From assembly GCF_020520425.1 (NCBI RefSeq), contig NC_079487.1:49824719-49888718 (forward strand): 64,000 bases of DNA, given 5' to 3'. Positions within the stretch are counted from its first letter, which is position 1; every line of letters starts with the position of its first letter. Origin of the DNA: Spinacia oleracea. Taxonomy: Eukaryota > Streptophyta > Magnoliopsida > Caryophyllales > Amaranthaceae. The notes beneath the pieces were generated by a model that did not search any database, had not been told where the DNA came from, and was given only the letters and a program-made list of their open reading frames with translations. Below, one piece after another: positions 6,083 through 55,482 of the stretch. Made by a program: the position numbers and the translations under genes.

Positions 6083-7524
6083 AAAGAAAATGACCGAGAA
6101 GTCGAGAACTAATTAGTTGGCGCTCCCTTGAGAGAGAAGGTATTGTACTTTACGCATTTTTGGGAGGATTGGACTCATATGAGAGGGCAAAGAGAGCGCA
6201 ATTGGGGTTTAATGATATGGAGAAATGAAGAAAGGAAGAAAGGGCGGGGAATTTGAGTGGATGACTTAGCGAGCCTTGCCTTCTTGGATAGTGCTAACCT
6301 ATAGACCAGGAATTTGGTCCTGATTCACTATAAACCAGGAGTGGATGATTTAGTTTAGAAAATGATGTGCAAATTCACTGTCTAATTCTGTTAAAATAGT
6401 CCAAGAGTGTGCCGGCTACATGCCAAATTTCCGTTCACATGTTGGATCGCAGGAGTAGCACTGAATTTTCCTAATTTTCTGCATCATTATGCTTACTGTT
6501 TATTTCAGAGCTAGCTTGCTGTTTATTTCAGGATGCCTGCTTTTTCATTGAAATGTTTGACAGTTGCAAATAGTTATGAAACTCTATTTGAAATGTTTGA
6601 CAGTTGCAAATACTTTCCAATTTGATAATGTGCACGAAAACGCACCTTCTTTATTATAGTTGATGGTTTTTATGTCAAGTATTGATAATTCAACATTTCT
6701 GCAGAAGTCAAATCATTGTGAAGCTAACATCGTTAATGATAGAATGGTTCGTAGTATGAATATGATTATGAAGCTGAACCATTGTGAAGCTGAACCAAAA
6801 GAAAAAGAAAAAACTATGAATATGACAAGAGGCTCGCCGGCTGTGGCTCATTTAAAACTCGGGTTTTCTTCAAATACAAGCTCTGTTGCATGAACAGAAG
6901 GTTACAGAGATGGCATTGCAGCTACATCGTTGAGGTTAGTGGCACCTGGTACCTTTGCAGCGGAGTAAACTTCGGTTGTTTTGGATTTGAGCAAATCGAT
7001 TTTTTATATCCTATTTTCACAATTATCTTAATCAAAGCTGCAGTTCTTAACTATGTTGTTGTACAAACAATGGAACACCACAGATGACACCAAACCTGTT
7101 CTTCAAGACCCTGCAATTAATCTTCCTCTCTTTCACTAGACCCTGTAATTTGTGAATTAATTTGATTATTGTTTTTGTTTGTTTTGGTAGTCATGGAGTT
7201 CAGACCCTACTCAAGTTGTACAAGCAGTGTTGCGGTTGCCACCATTTCCCTTCAAATCAAATGATCAACTCAATGAAGTATTTTAGGATGAATTTTCTTC
7301 ATGTACGAGTTTTTCAGAGTTTTTTCTTTTCTTTTTATTGTAATTTGCATTTCTGAAATAATAATACAATGATTCTCATATGTTCTGAAATAGAAATTGT
7401 AATTCCCTCAAACTCCTGTGCCCATGGAGTATATTTTAATGCTAGATTGCAAGTTTATTGATATAATATTTAGTTTTTAAATATCCGCACGCATCGCGTG
7501 CATATAAGACTAGTATATATATAT

Positions 7525-7620
7525 GGGGTCACCTTTCAATTAGAAGATCCTTATAATGAGAAGAATGAGAAGAGATCACGTCCGTGCACTCGAGATAATC
7601 CGACGGATGACGTGATGACC
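7525..7620 (+). repeat. E1 left terminal inverted repeat
   Basis: Aligns with the reverse complement of 13545-13640 through AATGAGAAGAATGAGAAG followed by a GATCACGTCCGTGCA-like segment (AATCTCGTGCGTTG at the other end). The match is imperfect beyond the shared 18-mer. Confidence 0.65.
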
Positions 7621-8146
7621 GACCGTGCAACAACAACATCAACTCCATCAAGGCATTAAAATTTAAAAGCAGAAAAAACAAAACAAAAATCAGACCCACC
7701 CCCACCTTTTCTCTCTCCTCCAATTTATACCTCCACAACCTTCTTCTTCTTTCAATGGCAGCAATAATTAATTTTCTCCACAACATCTTTCACTCTCCTC
7801 AAACACACTAAAACTGTAGCAATAATAATTTCATCTTATGATGAAAATCTTCTTCTAAATTTTTGATTGTTGGAGAGAAATTTGATGAATATCATCTTTA
7901 GAATTGCAAAAGTAGGCTTTCGAAATTATTGAATCAATTACAACTTGATTGCGAAATCGGATTAATTAGTAAAATTTTATTGTGAAATTGAATACATACA
8001 AAATTTTAGGTTTGATGTCGTCAATTTCATTTAATGTTTCAATTTCTACATCACTTGGAAATTTCGGTCAGTTATTTTCAAATTGTAATGTGATTGTGTT
8101 TTATTGCTGGTCATTTTGATGTTGTGTTGCTATAAAGTTGGTCTTT

Positions 8147-8398
8147 TTATTTTTTGAATTCCATAGGAATGGGAATGCCAATGGCAGAGCTAAACGAGAA
8201 GATTGGGTGTCGTGGAGGGTTTACGACGATGCCGGTGAAGGTGGCATCCCTGGTCTCTGATTCTGTAAACGTCAAGATTTTGACGTCCTTGATGGAGACA
8301 GTGGGTTTTATGGGTTTGTAAATCAAGTAGAAGCAGACGGCGGCGAGGATGAGCAAATTTTCGATAATGGTGGTCCATATCCATCTGGACCACCTCAT
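8147..8398 (-). pseudogene. Fragment of an NDR1/HIN1-like (LEA_2) membrane protein
   Basis: The minus-strand frame begins near MRWSRWIW, continues with a hydrophobic segment (IIENLLILAAVCFYLIY, a likely membrane span) and then KPIKPTVSIKDVKILTF, the pattern of plant NHL/LEA-2 proteins where a single membrane helix is followed by the start of the extracellular domain. It stops after about 80 residues, so only the N-terminal part was captured. The family call rests on this pattern and is tentative. It probably represents host sequence picked up by E1. Confidence 0.4.
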
Positions 8399-8454
8399 GT
8401 CTATTGTTTGTCCACCACAACGTTTATGTTGTGCCTCCAGACTTGTTTGCTCAT

Positions 8455-10555
8455 CTTGTTCAAAATTAGTGTAATTGTATAAATGAGCAAATAAAATACA
8501 TTAGTTATTTTTTCCGGAAATGGCAATAATCCAGAAAAACTTGCGGTGATTAGATCTGTTTTTCTTATCGTTCTGGTATTTAGTAGTACGAAATCTCGAA
8601 AGGAATAAGAAGAGTTTGAGAAATTTGCTCGTTTCGGACGAATGATAAAAAAATTAAATGAACAAAAAAAAGAGCAAAAAACAATTAAATGAGCAAAAGT
8701 ATTTCAAAGATTACTTTGAAATGAGCAATGTTTTTGAATGTTAAATAATGCGAGATTTTAAAATATTTGCTCATTTAGACGCAATGCGCAAAAGTTTTGA
8801 ATATTAAGAAAGCCGAACTTTAAATTGTATAAATGAGCAAAACTATTTGCTCATTTGTGTAAAGTATAAGAAATGAGCAAAAATATTTGCTCATTTGTGT
8901 AAACTATAAGAAATGAGCAAAAATATTTGCTCATTTGTGTAAACTATAAAAAATTAGCAAAAATAACTAACAAAAATAGCAAAAATATTTGCTCATTTGT
9001 GTAAACGATAAAAAATGAGCAAATATTAAAGTTGAGATTTTAAAGTTTTACTCATTGTGTCTAAATGTGCAAATATTAAAATCCGAACTTTACACTTTTG
9101 CTCATTGTTTCTAAATGAGCAAATATAATATAGTTTCGATTTTAAATTTTTGCTCATTGTGTCTAAATGAGCAAAAGTTTATTAACAAACACGAACTTTA
9201 AAATTTTAAAAATAAGCAAAAAATATTTGCTCATTTATGTAAACTAACAAAAATGAGCAAAAATATTTGCTCATTTGTGTAAAATATAAAAAATGAGCAA
9301 ATATTAAAGTTCGGATTTCAAAGTTTTGCTCATTGTGTCTAAATGAGAAAATATTAAAATCCAAACTTTACACCTTTGCTCATTGTTTCTAAATAAGCAA
9401 ATATTATAGTTTCAATTTTAAATTTTTGCTCATTGTGTCTAAATGAGCAAATATTATAGTTTCGATTTTAAATTTTTGCTCATTGTGTCTAAATGAGCAA
9501 ATATTAAAGTTCGGATTTTAAATTTTTTCTCATTGTGTATAAATGACAAATATTAAAGTGCGGATTTTGAATATTTGCTAATTATTTTTAAATGAGAAAA
9601 TATTAAAGTTCGGATTTTTAATATTTGCTCATTGTTTTTAAATGAGCAAATATTAAAGTTCGGATTTAAATTTTTTGTTCATTGTGTCTTAATGAGCAAA
9701 TATTAAAAATGAGCAAAAATATTAAATATTTGCTCATTGTTTTTAAATGAGAAAAAAATTAAAGTTTGGATTTTAAAGTTTTACTCATTGTGTCTTAATG
9801 AGCAAATATTAAAATCCGAACTTTACACTTTTGCTCATTGTGGCTAAATGAGCAATTATTATAGTTTCGATTTTAAATTTTGTTCATCAAATATTATAGT
9901 TTCGATTTTAAATATTAAACTATACTCCCTCTGTATTTATTTATGAGATACACTTGCCTTTTCCGGCCGTATTTATTTAAGAGATACACTTGTCATTTTT
10001 AGTAACTTATCAACCCCACCATCTAATTAAATAATCTATCTACACCCCACCCCCACCCCCATTCCTCTAAAATGACATGGTCCCCACTTGTTTTACTTAT
10101 TAAAATATATACCCAACCCCATTTGTTTTATTACTTTATTTCATTCAATTCTTTTTCTTAATACCCGTTCCCGACCAAGTGTATCTCTTAAATAAATACG
10201 GAGGGAGTAATATTTGCTCATTTAGACACAATGAGCAAAATTTTGGAATATTAACAAAGCCAAATTTTAAAATTGAGCAAATAAGTTATAAAAAATGAGC
10301 AAAAATATTTACTCATTTGTGTAAACTATAAAAAATGAACAAAATTTTTAAATGTTAAGTAATATGAGATTTAAAAATAATTGCTTATTTAGCCACAATG
10401 AGCAAAAGTTTTGAATATTAACAAACCCGAATTTTAAATTTTAAAAAATGAGCAAAAATATTTGCTCATTTGTGTAAATTATAAAAATGAGCAAATTTTT
10501 TTAATGTTAATTAATCTGAGATTTCAAAATATTTGCTCATTTCGACACAATAATG
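8455..10555. repeat. Array of short hairpins, TTTGCTCATT / AATGAGCAAA
   Basis: The motif ATGAGCAAA and its complement alternate many dozens of times. Two unit types are clear: about 40 bp (AATGAGCAAA, AATA, TTTGCTCATT, then TGTGTAAACTATAA), best seen at 8830-9010, and about 50 bp (TTTGCTCATT, GTGTCT, AAATGAGCAAATATT, then AAAGTTCGGATTTTAAA), best seen at 9020-9850. Each unit can fold into a hairpin of 9-11 base pairs. A Stowaway MITE interrupts the array at 9925-10207. Scattered copies also occur at 11237-11283 and 12718-12790. Confidence 0.9.
9925..10207. mobile_element. Stowaway-like (Tc1/mariner) MITE
   Basis: The termini CTCCCTCTGTATTTATTT and AAATAAATACGGAGGGAG are inverted repeats and are flanked by TA on each side (9923-9924 and 10208-10209). 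The CTCCCTCCGT terminus and TA target are typical of plant Stowaway MITEs. About 283 bp, no coding capacity. Confidence 0.9.
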
Positions 10556-10636
10556 TTAGGAGCTCTGATGTTTTATAGCAATTTAGCACAGTATGGTGGA
10601 ATGGTCATTTATTATTATAAGTAATTCTTGATTTGC

Positions 10637-11075
10637 AGATTCAGATTGTGACTTTGTGAGTGAGTAAGACAGTCACCATACCACTCTCTCCAATTCAGAA
10701 GCAGCAACAGATGTCAGCTTCAAACCAATTCAAAAAGGATAAGAAAGAAGAAGTGAAGAACCCAATTGTTTTGGCCAACTCCAACTCTACACCTTCTCAC
10801 TTAAGTTTGAGTGTGCAAGAGAGTCAGAATTTAATGGCTGAGAATTTAACTAATGCTTCATCAGAATCGTCGTCGTCGCCGTGACAGCAATTGAATCCCC
10901 CATGAAAAATGTACTCAGTAGATTATTTTGTTTTAGTAGCGCTTGTAAAGGAAGCCCGACTTTGAGACTTAGAAGGCGGCTTTGTGGTGACGTTGAGGAG
11001 GACTTTCAATATGCAAGCTCTGGTAGAAAACGAGAATATAACCTGAGAAATTATACTTTGCAACTAAAGAAGTAG
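10637..11075 (+). pseudogene. Exon-like open region in E1, unidentified
   Basis: After a strong acceptor-like TTGATTTGCAG at 10636, a frame at 10660-10884 encodes a hydrophilic peptide rich in Ser, Gln, Asn and Lys (SPIQKQQQ, FKKDKKEE, SESSSSP). An overlapping frame (10881-11075) encodes a short Arg-rich peptide (TLRLRRRLCGD, GRKREYNLRNY). I recognise neither. They may be two exons of a captured or ancestral gene, or chance. Confidence 0.3.
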
Positions 11076-11144
11076 TAAAAGAAAACTATTAAAAGTAAGA
11101 ATAAAGACCCGGCTCAAAATGATTAGAACAAAAAGTAAAGATTG

Positions 11145-11214
11145 ACCTACATGGGATTCGAACCCACATCTTTTGTGCATTTGCACAATGCTCTACCTAT
11201 TGAGCTAGTAGGCT
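11145..11214 (-). ncRNA. tRNA-like sequence in E1
   Basis: On the minus strand a cloverleaf can be drawn: acceptor GCCTAC/GTAGGT, D arm GCTC-AATAGGTA-GAGC (A box TAGCTCAATAGGTAGAGC), anticodon arm TTGTG-CAAATG-CACAA, T arm GTGGG-TTCGAAT-CCCAT (B box GGTTCGAATCC). A T5 run follows about 10 nt downstream, as for a Pol III terminator. The anticodon loop has 6 nt rather than 7, so it is unlikely to decode. E2 carries a related sequence with the same odd loop. I see no CCA-adding evidence at DNA level. Confidence 0.7.
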
Positions 11215-11283
11215 AGTGTTTTTAAATAGAATAAAATGAGCAAAATAAATTTACGAATTTTTTGCTCATTTGATCAGATGAGC

Positions 11284-12997
11284 AGAAACTAAATAGTCAG
11301 AACAAGCTCTCTGCTTGACAGCTTAGAGATTCATTCTTGATGAACTCGAAGCAGCAATGTTAGAGAAACATGGTGTCACGGTAATCCATATCAACAAATC
11401 AATGATCAATGCTTACAGATAGTTGTGACTAGAAACCTTTTATTGGTCCACAGTCACCTTCAGTTTTCCAGAAATGTAGTTGCAGCATCTAGTTATAAAA
11501 CTATATCTACCAACAATGATCCCATATCATTATCTTTGTAGTCTTTGTTAAAAACTCTAATTTGAATTTAAATCTAAAAAGGGCACCACTAGTGACTAAC
11601 AATTGAAGCGACATCAAATTCTTCAATCCTACAAAGACAGCCTTGATTTTTTACTTTTGTTATCATTATTGCCACTGTGTTTCTAAATATTACACAACTA
11701 AGAGTTAACCCCTCAAAATCTGTGTTAGTTAATAGCATCGAGACATCAAGATGTCCACAACAGCACACAACTTTTTTTTGTAATGGTTGCAAAATTTATA
11801 TGATCAACTAAGAACATCACCATTCCTCTGAATGGAGTGGACTGGACTACTCGAGTACAAGACAAACCAGAAAAAGAAAGGAGACATCAAAGATATTCAT
11901 CTTTGAAGCGGGGAGCAGAAACCCACGTATAGATCAACAAACTCCAGCCAATTGTCAACTATACGGATAATTAGACCTACCAACCTTAGAAAGTTAGCTC
12001 TCTAAGCTAATGAAATTAGCTGATTCTAAAATTAGAAGGAATTCCTTGTCAATTGCATGAGCAATCACCCATAAAAGATGTGATTCCAAAGTTCAACCAA
12101 TTCCAAAGTTCAAGCAATTACATACACGAAAAGCTAGATGCAAAGAATACAATTCCACTTGATTTAGACTGTGAAGCTCACCTCATAATAGCCATGGTGT
12201 AAAGCATAGCCAACACTTCCTCTGATTTTGAAGCTCCATTACTAAACCCCTCACTAAAATCCAATAAACAATGAGCAATTATAACAACCACTAAGCTAAA
12301 CAATCACGAATTCAAATCAACAAATTCTCAGATTTAGATAAACACCTGAAGTGATGATCTTTTTGCTGAATTTCAACAATCGAAGCCGAAACTTCAATCA
12401 CAACTGGTAAACTTCAATCACTAAAATATACTACCCCTCCATTCTCAGTTAATAAACATTATTTGCACAACTTTCTTAAAAAGAAAGAACGATACATTGT
12501 AACCCTGACCTTAGCTTATAGGTCTGGGACCATTATTAATGTAGTTTTGGAACAGAAAACACATTTTCATAACTTATTGTGGCACCTGGTATTTAAGCTA
12601 TTAATGGGGACTCATAACCATGTACCAACTGGGGTAAATATTAGTCTTACAAGGAGTATCTAACAAAGAGGTTAATATATCTCCAGATCAACCAGTTTCA
12701 GAGTAAACTCTGAAAGTATTTGCTCATCCATGTCAACAATCTGAAATGAGCAAAAAATTGAGGAGAGGAAATGATGATAACTGAGCAAACATTTATGGAG
12801 CTTCACTTTAATCAATTAACCAATTTAACTAAACAACACTGTAATTATCAACACAAAATCACAGGAAAAAACTATCAACAAGCTGCTAAACAGCAGAAAA
12901 TTTCGACAGGAACGAGAATTAGACATAAGTAACTCATTAATTATCTAACCCTAAAATTTTAATTAAAAACTAAAAACAACTCACCAGAAGAGAGGGC
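11284..12997. other. E1 interior, no gene seen
   Basis: AT-rich sequence with only short frames. A segment at about 12428-12658 begins TACTACCCCTCCATTC and ends AAGGAGTATC, possibly a degraded Stowaway-type MITE, but the inverted repeats are too weak to be sure. A few ATGAGCAAA motifs recur near 12718-12790. Confidence 0.4.
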
Positions 12998-13115
12998 GAA
13001 GATATGGTGGCGGTCGACGGAGTGGTAGTAGTCGGCGAAGTGGTGGCGGTCAGCGGAGTGGAGTTGGAGTGGTGGCGGTCGGCGGAGTGGTGGTGGAGTG
13101 GTGGCGGAGCTTTGG
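12998..13115. repeat. GTGGTGGCGGTCGGCGGA minisatellite
   Basis: Imperfect copies of GGTGGCGGTCGGCGGAGTGG repeat in a GC-rich block within AT-rich DNA. On the minus strand it would encode a Pro/Thr/Ala-rich tract, perhaps the end of a captured 5' exon. Confidence 0.65.
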
Positions 13116-13289
13116 ATTTTGCGAGAAACTTTTCACAATTTCTTCAATTCCTCCCTAATCGCATATAGCAAGTGAATAATTGAGTATTGCAGTATTCTTC
13201 GCATGCAAACATCAAAATCGAAGCTGAAAATCACTAAAAAATTGCATAACCCTCTAATTTACAGAAACCAGCAAAAAATTCACTCACAA

Positions 13290-13470
13290 ATTGAAGAAGA
13301 GAAGACGATGCGTGGATGATGGCAGCGTGGAGATGGTGGCGGCGCGATGGTTGCAGCTAGGAAACAGTAGCGGTGAGGAGAGAGAATCACGAAGGAGAGC
13401 GAAAATGGAGGAGAGAGAATAAGGGGCTTGTGAGAGAAACTCACGAGGAGAGAGAAAATGAAACAGGTTT
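13290..13470 (-). other. Leader-like CT-rich segment pointing inward from E1 right end
   Basis: On the minus strand it reads TTTTCTCTCTCCTC, TTATTCTCTCTCCTCC and GATTCTCTCTCCTC, like a plant 5' untranslated leader. The left end of E1 has a matching plus-strand segment (7705-7765, TTTTCTCTCTCCTCC). The symmetry suggests that each end carries a promoter and leader reading toward the centre. Confidence 0.45.
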
Positions 13471-13639
13471 CTGAAAGTCAGGAAACAGAAAATATTTGGT
13501 CATATTTTTTTAAAATATTTACGGTTTTGCCATTATTAAACCGCGCTAGGTAGATTCTTAGAGTTGTTAGATCTGATCACAACAACGCACGAGATTGCTT
13601 CTCATTCTTCTCATTTTAAGTCACCTTCTCATTTGAGTG

Positions 13640-13640
<1 letters not shown>

Positions 13641-13673
<33 letters not shown>
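13641..13673. repeat. TA microsatellite between E1 and E2
   Basis: About 16 TA units separate the right end of E1 from the left end of E2. Confidence 0.9.
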
Positions 13674-13676
<3 letters not shown>

Positions 13677-13775
13677 AAGGGATCCGGTGAAAATAGGTCC
13701 CTATGTGAGTATACTAGTATATATGAGAATGAATCTAATCCGTAGGATTAGATGAAAATCAACGGCTAGGATTAA

Positions 13776-14168
13776 GGGCGTGTTCGGCGGTAGCTTTTGA
13801 GGTAGCGGGTAGCGTTTTGACCGAGTCAAGACGCTACTTGTAAAATTTGTAAGTGTTTGGCGAGGTAGCGATTTAGGTAGCGGTTAGCGGTAGAGGTAGC
13901 GGTTGAGTAGCTTTTATCAAACGTTAAAATTAGTAGCGTTTAAGGTAGCGGGTAGCGTTTGACAAATTTATAATAAAGTTTTAAATAATATTTCACCTTT
14001 TATTTTATTTTATAATATCAACCGCTACTTTTACCGAACACTCATATCAGTTACCCGCTAACTTTGACAGCTAACCGTTACCCGCTACTATTGACCGCTA
14101 CCCGCTACTCCAACCGTTACCCGCTACTGAACCGCTACCCGCTACCGCTACTTTTGCCGAACAGGGCC
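13776..14168. mobile_element. Harbinger/Tourist-like foldback MITE
   Basis: The ends GGGCGTGTTCGGCGGTAGC and GCCGAACAGGGCC are inverted repeats and are flanked by TAA on both sides (13773-13775, 14169-14171), the 3-bp target of PIF/Harbinger elements. The interior consists of GTAGCGGGTAGCG repeats on the left and their complements on the right, so the whole 393 bp can fold back. It sits 100 bp inside the left end of E2 and is therefore younger. Confidence 0.88.
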
Positions 14169-14989
14169 TAAAAGCAAGTAATGGAAATAATTTAAATAAC
14201 CTCCCACACACCAAATAATAAAAAATAAAAAAACAGACGTTTCTCTCTCTAAAAATATTGTACAGCCTCTCCCAAATTCAACCCCCTTCCTCTCTCTCAG
14301 ACTTTTCTCTCTCCTCTAAAAACTGTCATTAAAGCTTCAAAAATTGTCGATGAAGCTTCAATTCACTCGATTTAGTCGTTGATTTCAAATAGTTCTTGGT
14401 GAATTCTTCTATATCTCTTCTCTTCTTCAACAGTTTCGTCTATTTTAACCTAATTTTTTGTATTCGTTTAAGATTGGAGATGAAGGAAGCAGAAAAATCC
14501 AAAAAAACAAGCCGAAAAAGCTAGGAACGAAGAAGGTAATACAATACACGAATTTCACACTATTTTCTTGTTTTTAGATCTTGATTTAGGTTAATTTGTG
14601 TTTATTTTATAGTGTAAGGAAAATTATGAAAAAGAAGATGAAATTGTGTAAAAACGGAAGAAAAACACATATCACATTCAGAAGATCGCGAAGAATCTTA
14701 TGTAAGTAATTGATTGGATGTTCTATTTCATGATTTGATTTTTCTGAAATTTTTGTTATTATTTTTTGAAATCATAATCAGTTTATTCTTAATATTTGTG
14801 ATTATTTTTTGAATTAATTGTTCATGTTTCTAAATTATTTGGTGATTAGTTTTGAATTTCTGAATGTTTAGGTGATTAATATCTGACTTTTTTAATTAAT
14901 TTGTGAAAATTTTCTATATTTTTGGATTTACTGATTTTATGAATTAATTCATGATGTTCTATAACTTATAGTTATATGTTCTGAATGTT

Positions 14990-15115
14990 TGAACAGAGAA
15001 AATTCAAATGTCGGAAATGAGATCAAACGCGCCCAAACAACAGAGTTATATCGCACTGGTAGTTCTATTGCCGAACAAGCACTTGTGAATGACGTCCTTG
15101 TAAATGTTGGGTAAT
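14990..15115 (+). pseudogene. Exon-like frame A in E2
   Basis: It follows an acceptor-like TTTGAACAG and runs to a donor-like GGGTAATAT. It encodes a short hydrophilic peptide (NEIKRAQTTELY, SSIAEQALVND). Unrecognised. A related frame lies at 15385-15451, and the DNA after both is similar (TAATATTTTATA, then TTTAGAACA and GAAGGTT), so the exon with its following intron seems to have duplicated. Confidence 0.35.
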
Positions 15116-17340
15116 ATTTTATAATCTCAATTCTTTAGAACATGAAGGTTCAACATTTAGAACATGAAGGTTCTCTATTTAGAACAAAAATGTTTAATGT
15201 TTAGAACATGAAAGTTACCTTTTAGAACACCAAAATTTAGGTATAGTGATGGTTCAATTATTGAGAAATGAAAGATATTTGAAAGAATTAGATCTTATTT
15301 GACTACATTTACCATATTTGAACCTTGTGCATGACTATGTCATCAAACTAACTATTTTTGGCTTTTGTGTCTAATAATAAACGCGCCAAATCTACGGAGC
15401 CTATTGTCCCTCCATCACTTCTGAACGACATCATGAACAATTTAGAGTAATATTTTATACTCTCAATACTTTAGAACACGAAGGTTAAGAATGTAGAACA
15501 TCATAGCTCACTGTGTAGAACATCATAATTTCATATGCTCTAATTATAAGTGCACATGTTCTGAATTTGATGAGAATAATATTTCTCCCAAACATATTAA
15601 CTTTTGATCAAAGGATTTTCATATATTCTTCTTGCCTCTATGTCAAACTTGAGTTTCGTTCTTGAGTAGCTACTGCATTCCCTAGGACTAGTAGTCTAAC
15701 ACTCCTAGCATGGAGGATTACTACTTAAAATTGTTCAAATCTATCATGTATTTAGGATTACATTTCTTCATTCTACTCTCTCTATTAGGACCATGAACCC
15801 AAAGCATGTAGTTGTAAGAATTCAAAAAGACAAAATTCTGAATTAAAAAAGTATGCGAGTGAGAAGCTGTTGATGAGGTATGCCTTGAATTCAAAAAGTA
15901 AATGTTTAGTTGATGAGGTATGCTTTGGATAGGTTTATTGTTTGTTGATTACTGGGAGAAGTTGTTGACAAATGGTGATTTTTTTCTCGAATTAGGCTAA
16001 ATACTTTAAATTTGTTTGTGTTTGCTTAGGATTGTTAGGTTATTGATGAATAGTACCCCGCATTGCCAGGCATCAAATCCTTGATCCCATTCTTATGCAT
16101 TTTTTCTGACTTTTCTTTGGATGTTAAGAATTCTAGATGCACTTTCTTGTGAAATTTCTGCATGATCTGCATTGAAACTATTAGTCATAGAAAGTAGAGA
16201 ATTTTGTGTAGATTCTCAACATATGTTAGTCACATGCTTCTTAGAAGTTAAGGTGTTTCTTTCATGTACAATCTCTTACTTTTCATGACAATAACAATTG
16301 AGGTTACGTGGGTTAACTGATTGTTGTACGTATATCAACTATTTGAGAATTAGAAAGTAAAGAACTGCCACAAAGAAAATTAGGTCATACTTTCATGTTC
16401 TTTGTTCTTAGGAAACAATTAATTCCTTTATCTGCTTCAATTTTATCTTTTACCAATTTATGAAAGGTGAGATTAACAGAAGATAATACTCATAGTTCAC
16501 TGGAAAGGACAATTGTTCATTGCTCAAGCCTTCTGATGTACAAACTTTGTGGTTCTTTTTTGAAGTGATTATGCAATTAGTTATTACCGTCATTAAAGTT
16601 CTCAAGTCTAAACTTATTTATTTGGTTTTCCGAAGGAATTGCCTACAACAATTGAAATGGTCATCTTATGCAACTTGTTTTGTTTGCAAAGATGTAAGCT
16701 CATGTTTGATGCTTCTAATGCATTTGTTATTATCAGTGGTTATATTTTTTGTTAGAACATATAGTTGAACTGGTAAGAACATGTAACTTAACCAATTAGA
16801 ACATATAGCTTCATAGGCTGGAACATATAAATTCAATTGTTAGAACATATAACTTATCTTGTTAGAACATGTTGGTTCACTAGTTAGAACATATAGTTTC
16901 GTTGGTTAGAACATGTAACATATGTTGTTTTTGATATAATATCCATATTATAAACATAACTAAATTTTGGTTGCGTTTGGTTTAAAGGAATTACCTTCTA
17001 TGTTGATATTTGGTTATGGTTGTTAGCTGCTGTGATCTGTGCAATTGAGCTTTAGGTTTGGCTAGCAGTTAGTCCGAAAGTAAATTAAATCTCTCAAATA
17101 GTAAACAAAATCTCTCTAAAAGTAAACTAAATAACAATGAAACATCATCTCTCACTGTGTTAGAACATATAGCTTAACTGCTTAGAAAATGTAGCTTAAA
17201 TGATTAGAACATATAGGAATAATGTATAATGGTAACAATCCAAAGAAAGGCGAGAGAAGCCATTAAGGAACATTAAGCCTATTTTATTTTTTCCAGTTTT
17301 CCTTTATGTTGTGTGTCTTTTTTAAGGGATTTGTAATTAA

Positions 17341-17363
17341 GGGGGGGGGGGGGGGGGGGGGGG
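17341..17363. repeat. Poly-G tract
   Basis: An uninterrupted run of 23 G inside E2; the exact length is doubtful in any assembly. Confidence 0.9.
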
Positions 17364-18481
17364 AGTGAGTATGCAGGCATGTTGATTGTATTAGGTGAAA
17401 GTGGGAGAGTAGAGAACCTCTTGAACGTTCTCAAGCAATACATGTTTATAAGCTTTAAGCATTTATCAATACAAATTACAATCTTTCATTTAAATATGAG
17501 TTTGAGTGAGTGAGTTTGTTGCATGATGACAAAAAGAACCACCTGAACATTCCCATTTGGATAACAAAACCAGGTTCATAAGACCATTATCCATTTATTG
17601 CTCATGTTAGTAACCAATTTGGGAAGAAAAATAAGTGTATCAGTGTAGATAAAGGTACAAAAATCTTGCAGGACAAGTGCAGTGGTCTGTTTTTCTGTAT
17701 TCTAATGGGCTAGTTCCCAGATGAGTGTAATGGATGTTCAACAACGTAACAGAACATGTACTTTGTTAATGCAGAACATGTCCCTTAACTAGTTAGAACA
17801 TATTGCTCAACTTGTTAGAACATATAAGTTTAATTGTTAGAACATATACTTTAGTTGTTAAAACATGTAGGTTTAATTATTAGAACAATTAGATGAAATG
17901 CATAGAACACATGGTATTGGTCCTTGGTACTTATATTAAATGAGTTCAGAACATAATTTTAATTACTGCAGAACAAAAGATAAGTAACTTAGAACATATA
18001 TACTTTGTTAATGCAGAACATGTTCCTTAACTAGTAGAACATATTGATCAACTTGTTAGAACATATAAATTTAATTGTTAGAACATTATATGCATTATTT
18101 AAGAATATTTCTGTTCTAAATTTCATAACAAGATGTTCTGAAACTAGAAGGATATGTTCCAATATTATTTTCTTGTATCTAATATGTTCATGAAGTTGCT
18201 TTGGGTCTGATTTTATGCCTATTTTTATGACAATTTTGGCCAGGTTAGCTATGTTGTGTTTTCATGTGCGACATTATGGGCTAGTATATTTGTTTCAAAG
18301 ATTGGTGTTGGTCTTAAGTTGTTGCATAGTTGCTGGTGTAGGCTATTTGTTTTGCAGGGAGGGTTGTTGCAGGTCAGTCTAGGGTGGGAAGTGGTTCTGC
18401 TCTGTTTGGTTGTTGCTATAAGCTTTGTGTGTGTGGTGCTGTTGTAAGTAATGGTCGTCAATGCTTGATGTTTTGGGACAA

Positions 18482-18551
18482 TGCCTATTATCTCAATTCG
18501 TAGAGCTTTGTGCAGTTTCACAATGATGTAGGTTCAAATCCTACATAGGCA
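18482..18551 (+). ncRNA. tRNA-like sequence in E2
   Basis: The cloverleaf is acceptor GCCTAT/ATAGGC, D arm around CTCAATTCGTAGAG, anticodon arm TTGTG-CAGTTT-CACAA and T arm GTAGG-TTCAAAT-CCTAC. It aligns over 70 nt with the tRNA-like sequence of E1 at roughly 70 percent identity by eye. Acceptor (C-G to T-A) and T-stem (G-C to A-T) changes are compensatory. The anticodon loop is again 6 nt. The D loop has lost its GG, and no T run follows closely, so Pol III expression is doubtful. Confidence 0.65.
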
Positions 18552-18900
18552 ACTCGTTTCAAATCACGGTATTTATCCATGAACACATACGAGATTGTGA
18601 TGTCTTCAGTTATGTGTTGGGTGTAGTTATGCATATTGTGTTTGTTACTTGCATGTGTCTGTGCTCGGTCTTTCATGTGTATCTGCGTCAATTCATAACA
18701 TTTAGTTTCCGAATTCATAAAGTTTAGCTTAGGAATGCAGAACATTTAGTTTGGGAACTCATAACATCTAGTTTAGGAAGTCAGAACATTTACGTTGGGA
18801 ATTCAGAACATCGAATTTGTGAATTCAGAACATCTACTTTGTAAATGTAGAACATATGATATTTTATTGTTTCTAATATTCAAAATTTAATTCACTGCAG

Positions 18901-18992
18901 TTTGAGCAAATGAAGAGATTGAGGCTTGAGTATTGTGGCGAGATATTGGCACACAAGAAAAATGATGAACATCATGTTATGGTTCCGAGTTA
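18901..18992 (+). pseudogene. Exon-like C-terminal frame in E2
   Basis: After an acceptor-like TTCACTGCAG at 18900, a frame reads FEQMKRLRLEYCGEILAHKK and on to a stop at 18990-18992. The pattern faintly recalls the C-terminal helix of plant ULP1-like (C48) peptidases carried by some transposons, but 30 residues are too few to assign it. If real, it is the last exon of a gene once encoded by E2 or captured by it. Confidence 0.25.
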
Positions 18993-20966
18993 AGGAAATG
19001 GGAAACAAAGAATCAAATTTAACGGGATCATAATGTCTTTGTAACATCAAATGTTGAATTTCTTGTAAATACTTTATGTTGAATTCGTAAAATTAGTAAA
19101 CCATCAATTTATATTGGATGGTTTTGATCAACTTGTAATAGATTCATTTGCTTGAAGTTTAATTTGACTAATAGACTTGTAATGTGATATGCTAATGAAT
19201 CTATTAAAAAAGAAGTCAATTACTTCACAAGTCTACTAGCTAAACCATGTTCAAAAGATCGGTAAAAAATATATTCTATTTTTCTATGTAGAACAAAAGA
19301 TGTGAAAATTTAGAACATGATCAACAACACGTAGAAAAAAAAGGTGTTTAATTTTAGAACATGGTCAACAAAACCAAAATACGGTTATAATAAAATATAT
19401 AAAATTTATACAACAATTTGAACCGTAACACTATGTCCATCCAGAATGATAATTAAAATGTAACACTAAAAATAAGATATAAAAAAATAATGTAAAAAAG
19501 AGTACAACGTACATAATTTTTCAAAATTAAAAATACAAAACATGTAACAAATAAAATCATAAACTCTAACTGCACGACAAATATTGAAATCGAGTTTTGT
19601 TTGAAGAAAACGAATCAATGACAATGTCCTGAAAATAACAAAAAGGATTAGTGTCAAGACAACTAAACAAAAAATAATAAAGCTACTATACAAATTAGAA
19701 CATTATATATGTATATTTTTTAGAACATGATGTATATTGTTTAGAACAGTAAGCATGTTGTGTAGAATACAATGAAAAGTTTCCTAGAACATGTTGTGTA
19801 AAGTTTAGAACATGTTGTATATTGTTTAGAACATGTATATTTTTTAGAACACGATGTACATTTATTTCGATCATGAAAGAAATAAAAACAGTTATCTAAA
19901 TATTCAAATCATATTATAAAAAAGTTATAAAGTTCACTTCACTTTTTCCGGGAAATTTCGAATATCATGGTAACCAAGATCCTCACATCCTCTATATAAC
20001 CGAATCTATACAAGAATGTGAGAAAACAGTTCATAACATATATAATAATAACATAGAACATATGAATAAAAGTGCAGAACAAAAAGAGCAATTATTCAGA
20101 ACATCAACATTGTCAGTTGCATTGTAGTTCAGAACAAAAACATCGGTTATTCAAAACATTTAAAACAATCATCCAGAACAAAATGAACAATTATTCAGAA
20201 CAGTAAACTGGAGAAATATTAATAAGAAAACGCACCAGATTCAGTGATTGACGATTGCGGACTATGAAAACTTCTAATTACATAGCACAGATAGATAACA
20301 TAAGGATTAATGTGAAATTAAAAAGCATGAAAAACACAACAATGATCAGACAATATACATAATCGAATCAAAGAACAATATGATTTCGAATATTGCACAA
20401 TTACATGAATTCACAAATCCATGTTTGAAATTCAAACAATACGATTTCGCAAAATATGATCGAATTCAAATAAAAAACAAAAAATTAAGAAGGAAATTGA
20501 ATCAGAGAACAAATAATCTTTCCAAAACACAATCCAATTCAAAAAAACCGTTCTAAAATCATAAAATTAATCACAGATAATCATGAAAATAAAATTTGAA
20601 AAATTAAACAAGAAAATGAAATAATACCTTTAAACTCATGAAATCTGGAAATTTGGTGAATATATTTGAGAATCTGGAGTGAAATCGCAGCTATTAGGCC
20701 GAAAGTGAAGTGAAATTCGACCTTGATTGAAGCTCTAATGGTGGCACAATGAAGAGAGAAAATAGAGGTTTATAGTTTTTTAGAGAAGCAGTGAGCGTGA
20801 AAAGGGAGGAGAATGGCTGGGTAATAGTTTAATAAATTTACAAATATGCCATTACTAATCCCTTGATTTTGAGCTGTTAGATTAGAAAAGATCCAAAGGC
20901 TCAGATTAATTCTCACATAAGATTGTGTTCTCACATAGAAGGGGTGTTCTCACATGAGCCTTACTC

Positions 20967-40449: not shown

Positions 40450-40760
40450 ATACTCCGGAAACGATGATATTGCCGGAAACGGAAATATGGATCGTATCGG
40501 AAATATAAATATTATCCAAATCGTAGATGTTGCCGGAAACGGAAACATGGTACGTATCGGAAAATATTATCGGAAATGGAAATATTGCCGGAATCGGAAA
40601 TATTGCCGGAAACGGAAATATTGTCAGAATCGGAAATATTATCGGAATCGGAAAATAATTCCGGAAACGGAAATATTAAATATTTGTTCGAAACGGAAAT
40701 TAATTCCGGAATCGGAAATATTAAATGTTGTTCGTATCGGAAATGAATTCCGGAATCGAG
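40450..40760. repeat. GCCGGAAACGGAAATATT array in the LTR
   Basis: About 17-18-bp units alternating ATCGGAAATATT and GCCGGAAACGG repeat through 300 bp of the LTR U3 region; the same array occurs in the 3' LTR at about 54432-54742. They could serve as repeated protein-binding sites; no factor can be named from sequence. Confidence 0.8.
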
Positions 40761-41137
40761 AATTTAATCGGAAGCGTATCGTACGAATTAGCATCGGACG
40801 AGGCCCGCTAGACGAAGGCCCAGCACGAAGCCAGGCCATCGCCCAGCGAGCCGCACGCAGCAACGCACGCCTCGACCAGGCCCAGCGCAAGGCCAGGCCC
40901 AGCCAAGGGCGCGCGCGCGCAGCACCGCACATGGGCTGTGCGCTTGTCGTGGGCCGCAAGGCCTGCGCGGGTGCACGGCTTGTACGATGCGTGTGCGGGA
41001 AATCCTAATCCTATTAGGATTCGTGCGAAGATTAAAATCCTAATCCTATTAGATTTTCTTTGTTATTTAGAGTCCTAATAAAGTTCTAATTAACAAATCC
41101 ACATCCTAGTAGGATTACAATTCCTTTTCCATACCTC

Positions 41138-54121: not shown

Positions 54122-55482
54122 TGAAGGAAATAATGCCCTTGGTCCAAGTATGCATTCTATGTTAAGTCTAATAAATGCGGTTCAGTATTAATTAACAAGT
54201 TAATAATTCAGTGAGATCAAGTGAGCTGAATGCCTAGCTAGAGGCCGCTTCAGTTCAAGTGGAATTAATGATATTAATCCACAGCTTAATCTTGACTGAA
54301 CCCGTAGGGTCACACAAATAGTACGTAAACGGATCAAGTATTTAATGGCATTAAATACTCCATCTATGGATATTCGGAATCGACGGATCTTGGTTTCAGT
54401 GGGAGCTGAGATCGTCACAGGCAAGAAATGAATACTCCGGAAACGATGATATTGCCGGAAACGGAAATATGGATCGTATCGGAAATATAAATATTATCCA
54501 AATCGTAGATGTTGCCGGAAACGGAAACATGGTACGTATCGGAAAATATTATCGGAAATGGAAATATTGCCGGAATCGGAAATATTGCCGGAAACGGAAA
54601 TATTGTCAGAATCGGAAATATTATCGGAATCGGAAAATAATTCCGGAAACGGAAATATTTAATATTTATTCGAAACGGAAATTAATTCCGGAATCGGAAA
54701 TATTAAATGTTGTTCGTATCGGAAATGAATTCCGGAATCGGGAATTTAATCGGAAGCGTATCGTACGAATTAGCATCGGACGAGGCCCGCTAGACGAAGG
54801 CCCAGCACGAAGCCAGGCCATCGCCCAGCGAGCCGCATGCAGCAACGCACGCCTCGACCAGGCCCAGCGCAAGGCCAGGCCCAGCCAAGGGAGCGCGCGC
54901 GCGCAGCACCGCACATGGGCTGTGCGCTCGTCGTGGGCCGCAAGGCCTGCGCGGGTGCACGGCTTGTACGATGCGTGTGCGGGAAATCCTAATCCTATTA
55001 GGATTCGTGCGAAGATTAAAATCCTAATCCTATTAGATTTGCTTTGTTATTTAGAGTTCTAATAAAGTTCTAATTAACAAATCCACATCCTAGTGGGATT
55101 ACAATTCCTTTTCCATACCTCTATAAATAAGGGCCTAGGGTCATTATTTGTATATACGATTCAAGTATTCAAAGTGATTTTTGAGAGCAAAAATTCAGTC
55201 ATACAATTGCCTACAATAGCCGAAAATTCTAAGTACCTTAAGGGCGATCCTAGTTGGTCAAGCTTAAGGCGGATCCGGACGTGCTGTGGACTATCTACGG
55301 AGGGACGACATTTGGAGTCCTAAAGACTTGTTCTTGTTCGGTTCGGGCGCAGCTAGGGAAGGCACGCAACAAAGTGTATGCATCTAAACTATGCTAAATG
55401 ATTATGTGTAAATAATATGCTTTCCTGGCTTTATGGTTTTTCCGCATGATTTATGAATTGTCATATGTATCATAACCTAACA
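54122..55482 (+). repeat. 3' LTR of the Copia-type element
   Basis: 1,361 bp, TG...CA, aligned throughout with the 5' LTR. Followed by the AATTA target duplicate at 55483-55487. Confidence 0.95.

What the first reader, a model, noticed from the sequence alone, without database searches (positions are those of the whole stretch)
11145..18551. A tRNA-like cloverleaf with an odd 6-nt anticodon loop is conserved between E1 and E2
11145-11214 (minus) and 18482-18551 (plus) align over 70 nt. Acceptor stem GCCTAC/GTAGGT versus GCCTAT/ATAGGC and T stem GTGGG/CCCAT versus GTAGG/CCTAC differ by compensatory changes, so the fold seems to have been under selection. Both anticodon stems are TTGTG/CACAA around a 6-nt loop, unlike decoding tRNAs. 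The surrounding element sequences are otherwise unalike. Possible roles: Pol III promoter, replication primer, or structural RNA for mobility.
Basis: partly seen in the sequence, partly recalled or inferred. Interest (0 to 1): 0.88.

Follow-up and report, generated by a model that had tools for sequence, protein, structure and literature searches.

The report
Paired tRNA-like modules in plant transposons
A plant genome holds hundreds of copies of a small tRNA-shaped sequence that cannot decode; it sits inside jumping genes that pick up pieces of host genes, next to the piece picked up, and its shape has been kept while its letters changed, so it probably acts as an RNA signal.

Summary
The window's assembly (894 Mb; probably spinach, my inference) holds two subtypes of a non-decoding cloverleaf: A (E1 type, 85 matches to its core) and B (E2 type, 109). 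Instead of a 7-nt anticodon loop they have a 6-bp stem with a free 3-4-nt loop; window E2 is a decayed B copy. In 57 distinct sequences, 7 of 22 stem pairs show changes on both sides (24 cells; 4.1 in shuffles). The modules belong to TA-microsatellite-targeting, gene-capturing, non-autonomous Mutator-like elements (MULEs). A member with the same A-end codes a FAR1-type MULE transposase and lacks the cloverleaf. Fullest plan: end, captured DNA, A pointing inward, TGAGCAAA array, B pointing inward, captured DNA, end. Genome-wide 24 of 85 A cores have a listed B within 12 kb, all 24 facing each other (0.29 expected). Best reading: an RNA module at the inner end of each arm that ends or processes cargo transcripts through RNase P and RNase Z, like plant mitochondrial t-elements. 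A Pol III unit or insulator is the main rival. No transcript data were available. The paper searches listed nothing like it.

The parts
7523..13645 (-). E1: non-autonomous TIR element of the TGAGCAAA family; B-type end about 7523-7605, A-type end about 13571-13645; no B cloverleaf found in it
   Evidence: End matches and inverted similarity; boundaries good to a few bases only, because they run into TA repeats
11144..11214 (-). Cloverleaf A (E1 type): acceptor, 4-bp D stem, 6-bp anticodon stem with AAAT loop, 5-bp T stem; two changes from the A consensus
   Evidence: Rfam tRNA 48.5 bits; R1 model 91 bits (this copy is in the model); fold; differences
11215..11235 (-). Conserved upstream flank of A (ATTCTATTTAAAAACACT)
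   Evidence: Alike in most of the 22 A copies printed; extent of similarity
11129..11143 (-). T-run just 3' of A (AATCTTTACTTTTTG), a possible Pol III terminator
   Evidence: T5 within 40 nt downstream in 18 of 22 A copies against 12% of background windows
8830..10550 (.). TGAGCAAA/TTTGCTCA array of E1 (with a MITE-like insert at about 9930-10210)
13644..13673 (.). (TA)n microsatellite shared by the right end of E1 and the left end of E2
13674..20966 (+). E2: TIR element of another family (end motif like TGTGAGAAC, array motif TTAGAACAT); copy L029 is 99.15% identical over 6.8 kb
   Evidence: Ends 64.5% alike in inverted orientation over 110 nt; L029 and L030
18482..18551 (+). Cloverleaf B (E2 type), a decayed copy: five changes from the B consensus; first D-stem pair and sixth anticodon-stem pair lost; box A and box B consensus lost
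   Evidence: Rfam tRNA 43.7 bits; R1 85.1 bits (this copy is in the model)
15133..19862 (+). Arrays of about 22-bp units with TTAGAACAT in E2, on both sides of cloverleaf B
13775..14169 (.). Insert in E2 that is absent from copy L029
   Evidence: Gap in the E2-L029 alignment

Best explanation
The cloverleaf is a conserved, non-decoding tRNA-like RNA module of gene-capturing, non-autonomous MULEs that insert into TA microsatellites. SHOWN: copy number, fold conservation and covariation, position and inward orientation, captured host-gene fragments beside it, and a member with the same A-end coding a MULE transposase. INFERRED: each end drives transcription inward through the captured DNA, which often lacks its own 3' end; the cloverleaf at the inner end of each arm folds in that transcript and is cut by RNase P and RNase Z, giving the cargo RNA a defined 3' end and keeping the two convergent transcripts from running into each other across the central motif array. 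It would work like plant mitochondrial t-elements or the mascRNA of MALAT1, without being a member of either.
For: Whole-cloverleaf covariation, with a C-G, U-G, U-A series in copies L050 and L039 and an anticodon-stem pair 27:42 that is A-U in 14 of 79 further copies where U-A is usual. The anticodon loop varies freely (12 tetramers in 96 copies) while its stem is kept (93 of 96 with at least 5 of 6 pairs). A and B consensus differ at 7 stem positions with all 22 pairs kept; random placement keeps all pairs with probability about 1e-4 (0.01 if 80% are transitions). The module is better kept than its surroundings: B 95.3% (11 loci chosen for A, not for B) against 64% and 68% in its 70-nt flanks, 67% in the first 60 nt of 7 B-ends and 55.6% for random 70-mers. 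For B, alignment upstream ends a median of 9 nt from the module. A lies inside of and points away from its end in 16 of 16 cases where the end was found. A and B face each other in 11 of 11 loci holding both and in 24 of 24 pairs found genome-wide (the two sets overlap). 16 of 39 exact A-ends have an exact A core 1.5-4.5 kb inside, all 16 in the same orientation. Cargo between end and cloverleaf: Peptidase_C1, PAS_2, IPK, GTP_EFTU and Pyr_redox_2, four of the five in sense with the cloverleaf. MULE, FAR1 and SWIM domains in L091/L094. t-elements are cut from mitochondrial mRNA ends, CCA-tailed and not charged (PMC11658184, passages seen).
Against: No RNA data. The G-U against A-C count meant to show which strand is folded was inconclusive (23 against 14 cells, p 0.19; 12 against 11 pairs). 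In one search slid versions of the structure reach up to 5 pairs with changes on both sides, so that single measure is weak (cells: 24 against at most 7). The conserved boxes and the T-run behind A fit a Pol III unit equally well. The transposase-coding element lacks the cloverleaf, and 18 of 39 exact A-ends have neither an exact A core nor a listed B inside, so the module is not needed for mobility as such. In 9 of 20 A-chosen loci no B was found within the 10 kb held (for L018 one lies just outside). The Peptidase_C1 cargo of L009 lies antisense to the presumed transcript.
Confidence: 0.45

Rival explanations
1. Pol III unit or insulator: the modules are transcribed by Pol III on their own (box A, box B, T-run), and the bound factors block read-through or silencing between the arms and the central array.
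For: Box A consensus in 55 and box B in 43 of 58 sequences; T5 within 40 nt behind 18 of 22 A copies against 12% background; a conserved TATTTAA-like flank upstream of A; position on both sides of the array. Class C copies lost most of the anticodon arm but kept the D arm and T arm, which fits this rival.
Against: A promoter role alone does not need the acceptor and anticodon stems, yet these covary. B has a T5 in only 3 of 12 copies, T4 in 8 of 12 against 34% background. Box B is also the T loop, so its conservation is ambiguous.
Confidence: 0.3
2. DNA-level element: the palindromic stems act as DNA (cruciform or single-stranded fold), for example as a boundary where gap repair switches template when host DNA is captured.
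For: The module lies at the inner edge of captured DNA; pair-keeping changes also fit folded DNA, and the strand test was inconclusive.
Against: The fold is that of a whole tRNA with D loop and T loop kept, more than a DNA hairpin needs.
Confidence: 0.12
3. Passive SINE or tRNA fossil: a tRNA-derived sequence was caught by an ancestral element and merely copied with it.
For: tRNA-derived heads with degenerate anticodon regions are typical of SINEs (recalled knowledge).
Against: Covariation; conservation far above the flanks; inward orientation in 24 of 24 pairs; no shared body beyond a median of 35 nt up and 17 nt down for A; sharing by element families with unlike ends and arrays.
Confidence: 0.07

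Closest known systems
MuTAnT / SaTar / Micron: TA-microsatellite-targeting MULEs (PMC4486113, PMC5907723; passages seen)
   Same: Imperfect TIRs, insertion in (TA)n, unlike elements lined up in one microsatellite without nesting (as E1 and E2), MULE transposase in a related element
   Different: Here 5.5-9 kb with captured host DNA and a central motif array; the word 'tRNA' does not occur in the main text of either paper
Pack-MULEs
   Same: Non-autonomous MULEs carrying host gene fragments between their ends
   Different: Here the cargo is bounded inside by a tRNA-like module; the one paper of the library holding both 'tRNA-like' and 'Pack-MULE' has them in unrelated passages
Plant mitochondrial t-elements; mascRNA of MALAT1 (PMC11658184, passages seen)
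   Same: Non-charging tRNA-like folds, cut from longer transcripts by RNase P and RNase Z
   Different: Those lie in mitochondrial genes or a human lncRNA; here a nuclear DNA transposon, and cutting is not shown
VANDAL MULEs with VANC target motifs (PMC5735166, passages seen)
   Same: Family-specific short motifs that evolve as tandem arrays in non-coding parts of MULEs
   Different: No VANC was recognised; the 276-aa second ORF of L091 had no Pfam, NCBIfam or protein match; no 'tRNA' in that paper's main text
tRNA-derived SINEs (recalled)
   Same: tRNA-like head with box A and box B
   Different: No body or tail seen; fixed place and orientation in a DNA transposon

Membership tests
MULE (TA-microsatellite-targeting) | Terminal inverted repeats | tested here: met
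   A-end and B-end share inverted ATGAGAAG blocks; the two ends are otherwise unlike
MULE (TA-microsatellite-targeting) | Insertion in (TA)n | tested here: met
   TA tracts beside most ends printed (tracts listed); ends of L011, L012 and L025 and one end of L028 lack a long tract
MULE (TA-microsatellite-targeting) | MULE transposase in a member with the same ends | tested here: met
   L091 with L094: exact 42-nt A-end, B-end 84% like that of L015 over 70 nt; PF10551 100.5 bits, FAR1 57.8, SWIM 31-32 bits (the two loci overlap there)
MULE (TA-microsatellite-targeting) | 8-11 bp target site duplication | not tested
   Hidden in TA repeats; not sought in the few ends outside them
Pack-MULE | Truncated host-gene fragments inside a TIR element | tested here: met
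   Five Pfam domains above the curated cut-off, each partial, in 4 of the 20 loci (L009, L015, L016, L027), among 20 ORFs submitted; parent genes were not looked up
Decoding tRNA | 7-nt anticodon loop on a 5-bp stem | tested here: not met
   0 of 100 listed of 124 places; the pattern favours the 16-nt arm by its spacing and is not counted here
SINE | Own body and 3' tail | tested here: not met
   No common sequence beyond a median of 35 nt up and 17 nt down for A
SINE | Single retroposition with target site duplications | not tested
   Duplications around single modules were not looked for
   No RNA data
VANDAL-type motif-array MULE | Dense family-specific motif arrays in non-coding parts | tested here: met
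   TGAGCAAA 17.2 per kb between A and B against 0.59 outside, 11 loci
VANDAL-type motif-array MULE | VANC anti-silencing protein | tested here: inconclusive
   276-aa ORF of L091 without any match; no VANC sequence was compared

The most novel reading that the evidence does not exclude
A family of gene-capturing DNA transposons carries its own tRNA-like 3'-end signal, a nuclear counterpart of mitochondrial t-elements, at the inner end of each arm, so that any host fragment caught between end and cloverleaf becomes a transcription unit with a ready-made processed end, and the two convergent transcripts do not form double-stranded RNA across the array that would call in silencing.
Probability: 0.35. 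Interest if true: 0.88.

Novelty: new variant of a known kind. Interest (0 to 1): 0.74.

Why it matters
Pack-type transposons make new chimeric genes, but a captured fragment needs a transcript end. A conserved tRNA-like module at the inner edge of the cargo is a concrete, testable answer, and it would be the first case known to me of a DNA transposon keeping a structured, non-decoding tRNA-like RNA in hundreds of copies. It is also a warning to annotators: the Rfam tRNA model scores such copies above its threshold.

Tried and rejected
Copies outside the window's own genome: core patterns gave 0 in viral contigs and 0 in genome contigs. Those collections are not plant genomes, so this says nothing about other plants.

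Strand test by G-U against A-C cells: inconclusive, so it is not used for the RNA reading. Slid-structure control for the number of pairs with changes on both sides: up to 5 against 7, so I rely on cells, percentage paired and the subfamily-level changes.

Considered and rejected: ordinary tRNA gene decay; plain SINE (see rivals); Helitron (the elements have inverted ends and a sister codes a MULE transposase). A likeness of window ORF 8150-8500 (minus) to an NDR1/HIN1-like protein was my recollection only; Pfam gave no family. A note says 10 of 20 loci have a B; the recount is 11.

Rows dropped: A1 used 20 of the 34 module copies (count). A2 used 30 of the 40 pattern-chosen B copies (ten left out, near-duplicates and the indel copy L070), 7 other B copies and 6 A copies. 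A3 added 15 of the 20 pieces, leaving out the four class C copies L080-L083 and L085 (same module as L079). One search also dropped L075. The loci L009-L028 were 20 of the 40 best hits and so are biased to well-kept A modules; B, the ends and the cargo in them were not selected. The B pattern fixes the anticodon arm and one side of D and T stems, so in that sample mainly the acceptor stem is unselected. The 20 pieces were picked by me for unusual anticodon arms. The B list is 100 of 109 places plus 43 further places out of the 100 listed (of 136). L091-L093 were 3 of the 18 A-ends without exact A core or listed B.
Full report
Check of the observation. ARAGORN reports only the first, without an anticodon. 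The claimed stem changes are real. The first look for the E1 70-mer gave 593 candidates and for the E2 70-mer 643, of which 40 each were scored. Core patterns match 85 A places, all identical, and 109 B places (with six free positions), with 0 for the reversed control patterns.

The fold. A and B are separate subtypes. Their consensus sequences differ at 12 aligned positions, 7 of them in stems; all 22 pairs stay standard, three by changes on both sides and one by a wobble. Placing 7 random changes keeps all pairs with probability about 1e-4, or 0.01 if 80% are transitions; three or more kept double changes come up with probability 1e-4 and 6e-4. With 58 sequences (57 distinct), 7 pairs show changes on both sides (shuffles 2.8 +/- 1.1; 1 of 500 as high), in 24 cells against 4.1 +/- 1.7 in shuffles (0 of 500); sliding the partners gives at most 7 cells, 5 such pairs and 50% of cells paired, against 96.6% for the structure itself. 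Shuffles ignore kinship, so the number of independent events is smaller: A against B gives three; the first acceptor pair also flips in the group L071-L073 and in L031 and L089; L039 has U-A and its flank-sharing sister L050 the U-G intermediate at pair 4:68; L033, L073 and L071 each add one. The count of G-U against A-C mismatches, meant to show which strand folds, was inconclusive (23 against 14 cells; 12 against 11 pairs).

The anticodon arm. The common form is a 6-bp stem with a tetraloop. A pattern that fixes the B-type D arm and a TG after 17 free bases has 136 matches, of which 100 are listed. Ninety-six carry the 16-nt arm; 93 of these form at least 5 of 6 pairs and 79 all six, while the four loop positions take 12 different tetramers. 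Four copies (class C) have only an ATCAAAAGAT-like stretch there, an A type that lost most of the arm. Because that spacing favours the 16-nt arm, a second pattern fixed the D arm, left 18 bases free and asked for no G at the next (124 matches, 100 listed). Of these, 79 form the 6-bp stem with a 4-nt loop, 12 with a 3-nt loop, 9 neither, and 0 a 5-bp stem with a 7-nt loop; in the 79, pair 27:42 is U-A 62 times and A-U 14 times, a further change on both sides. These are not decoding tRNAs, and no decoding parent with this D arm showed up in the listed places.

Where it sits. Twenty 10-kb stretches around A copies (chosen from the best hits, so biased for A) were fetched. Nineteen of 20 hold TGAGCAAA repeats. 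Fifteen of the 20, and window E1, show the A-type end, in each case upstream of A so that A points inward, 1.5 to 4.5 kb from the end (16 of 16). Eleven of the 20 hold a B copy, in each on the opposite strand and downstream of A. B-type ends lie 1.1 to 1.8 kb upstream of B in the four loci where both were seen. Between A and B lies the array: 17.2 motifs per kb against 0.59 outside, in the 11 loci. Seven elements had both ends found (L009, L013, L015, L022, L027, L028 and window E1); three of them hold B (L013, L015, L028), four do not. Genome-wide, 24 of the 85 A cores have one of 143 listed B places within 12 kb, all 24 facing each other; random placement gives 0.29 on average and at most 3 in 1000 trials. 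Starting instead from 39 exact A-ends, 16 have an exact A core inside on the same strand, 12 have a listed B on the opposite strand further in, 18 have neither, and one of these has a B outside the end. Exact patterns make these lower bounds: L092, one of three fetched A-ends with neither, holds an A copy of 91.9 bits.

What is conserved. In the A-chosen loci the B module is 95.3% identical on average (11 copies), its 70-nt flanks 64% and 68%, the first 60 nt of 7 B-ends 67%, and unrelated 70-mers 55.6%. A is 99.5% identical (selected for it) with flanks of 74% and 73%; the first 60 nt of 16 A-ends are 90%. The alignable stretch around A runs a median of 35 nt upstream and 17 downstream; around B, 9 upstream and 103 downstream. 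So the variable DNA reaches almost to the 5' edge of B and to about 20-35 nt before A. A T5 lies within 40 nt behind 18 of 22 A copies and 3 of 12 B copies, against 12% of background windows.

What carries it. Ends in (TA)n, imperfect TIRs and unlike neighbours sharing one microsatellite fit the MuTAnT and SaTar MULEs (PMC4486113, PMC5907723; passages); E1 and E2 themselves share one TA tract. The space between end and cloverleaf holds truncated host domains: Peptidase_C1 (L009, antisense), PAS_2 and IPK (L015), GTP_EFTU (L016) and Pyr_redox_2 (L027), the last four in sense; Dirigent in L013's B arm is below its cut-off. Most of the 20 ORFs submitted had no Pfam match above the cut-off. One element with an exact A-end and a B-like end (L091 and L094, about 12.2 kb) codes a transposase with MULE (100.5 bits), FAR1 (57.8) and SWIM domains, read inward from the B-end, and a 276-aa ORF of unknown kind read inward from the A-end. 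It has TGAGCAAA repeats but no cloverleaf (best hits 12.3 bits in L091, none in L094). L093 carries an ORF that begins with the same residues and has no cloverleaf in its 8 kb (best hit 13 bits). So the superfamily is MULE, and the module belongs to the cargo-bearing partners as far as these few elements show.

E2. E2 is another family: other end motif, other array motif (TTAGAACAT), with a copy 99.15% identical over 6.8 kb. Its cloverleaf has five changes from the B consensus and no longer matches the box A and box B consensus. Other B copies with nearly the same upstream flank as E2 have an intact cloverleaf (L043, L059, L062, L078 and others), so the window's E2 copy is a decayed branch. 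That families with unlike ends and arrays share a module about 93% alike points to exchange of the module or to strong constraint.

How it most likely works. In the transposase-coding sister both long ORFs read inward from the ends. In the cargo-bearing partners captured DNA stands in that place and the cloverleaf at its inner edge, pointing inward. A fragment of a host gene often brings no 3' end of its own. A tRNA-like fold there would let RNase P and RNase Z end the transcript, as t-elements do for plant mitochondrial mRNAs and as mascRNA is cut from MALAT1 (PMC11658184, passages), and would keep convergent transcripts apart. The position, the conserved whole cloverleaf and the free loop are shown; transcription, cutting and benefit are inferred. 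A Pol III unit or insulator explains the boxes and the T-run behind A and is the main rival; the two could act together.

Novelty. Searches for tRNA-like with Mutator-like element, Pack-MULE, spinach with SINE or MULE terms, RNase P and RNase Z with DNA transposon and cloverleaf with transposable element gave listings in which I saw no title or abstract start describing this; searches list only 15 of 20, 12 of 35 and 8 of 10 papers. The library holds open-licence papers only. MULEs, gene capture, TA targeting and motif arrays are known; a paired, conserved, non-decoding cloverleaf inside them is, as far as I could see, not described there.

Noticed in passing
L080-L083 (150 nt each): Class C modules: A-like cloverleaves whose anticodon arm is cut down to an ATCAAAAGAT-like stretch, with a T-run or T-rich stretch behind; L081 lies about 0.2 kb from an A core.
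   Followed up: partly
L091:1631-2458 (+) and L093:5552-6379 (-): A 276-aa ORF inward of the A-end with no Pfam match in either copy and, for L091, no NCBIfam or protein-database match; by position a candidate second gene (VANC-like role?) of this MULE family.
   Followed up: partly
window 40495-40908 and 54477-54890: Two stretches with the same repeat pattern, 13,982 bases apart, perhaps the two LTRs of a 14-kb retrotransposon.
   Followed up: no
window 9930-10210: A MITE-like insert with ends CTCCCTCTGTATTTATTTA.../...TAAATACGGAGGGAG inside the TGAGCAAA array of E1.
   Followed up: no
window 13775-14169: A 395-bp insert in E2, absent from copy L029, rich in TAGCGGGTAGCG-like repeats.
   Followed up: no
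L010:6754 (+) and L017:2268 (-): Ends of what look like further element families (GGTGAGAAG motif) in the same TA tract as the elements studied; no cloverleaf found in the parts held.
   Followed up: partly
E1, E2 and relatives: The array motif resembles the end motif of the same family (ATGAGCAAA with ATGAGAAG; TTAGAACAT with TGTGAGAACA), as if ends and array were bound by one protein.
   Followed up: no
One search places such as C1:98315805 and C3:28773750: Further anticodon-arm subtypes: ATGTGC/GCACAT stems and 3-nt loops, suggesting more subfamilies than A, B and C.
   Followed up: partly
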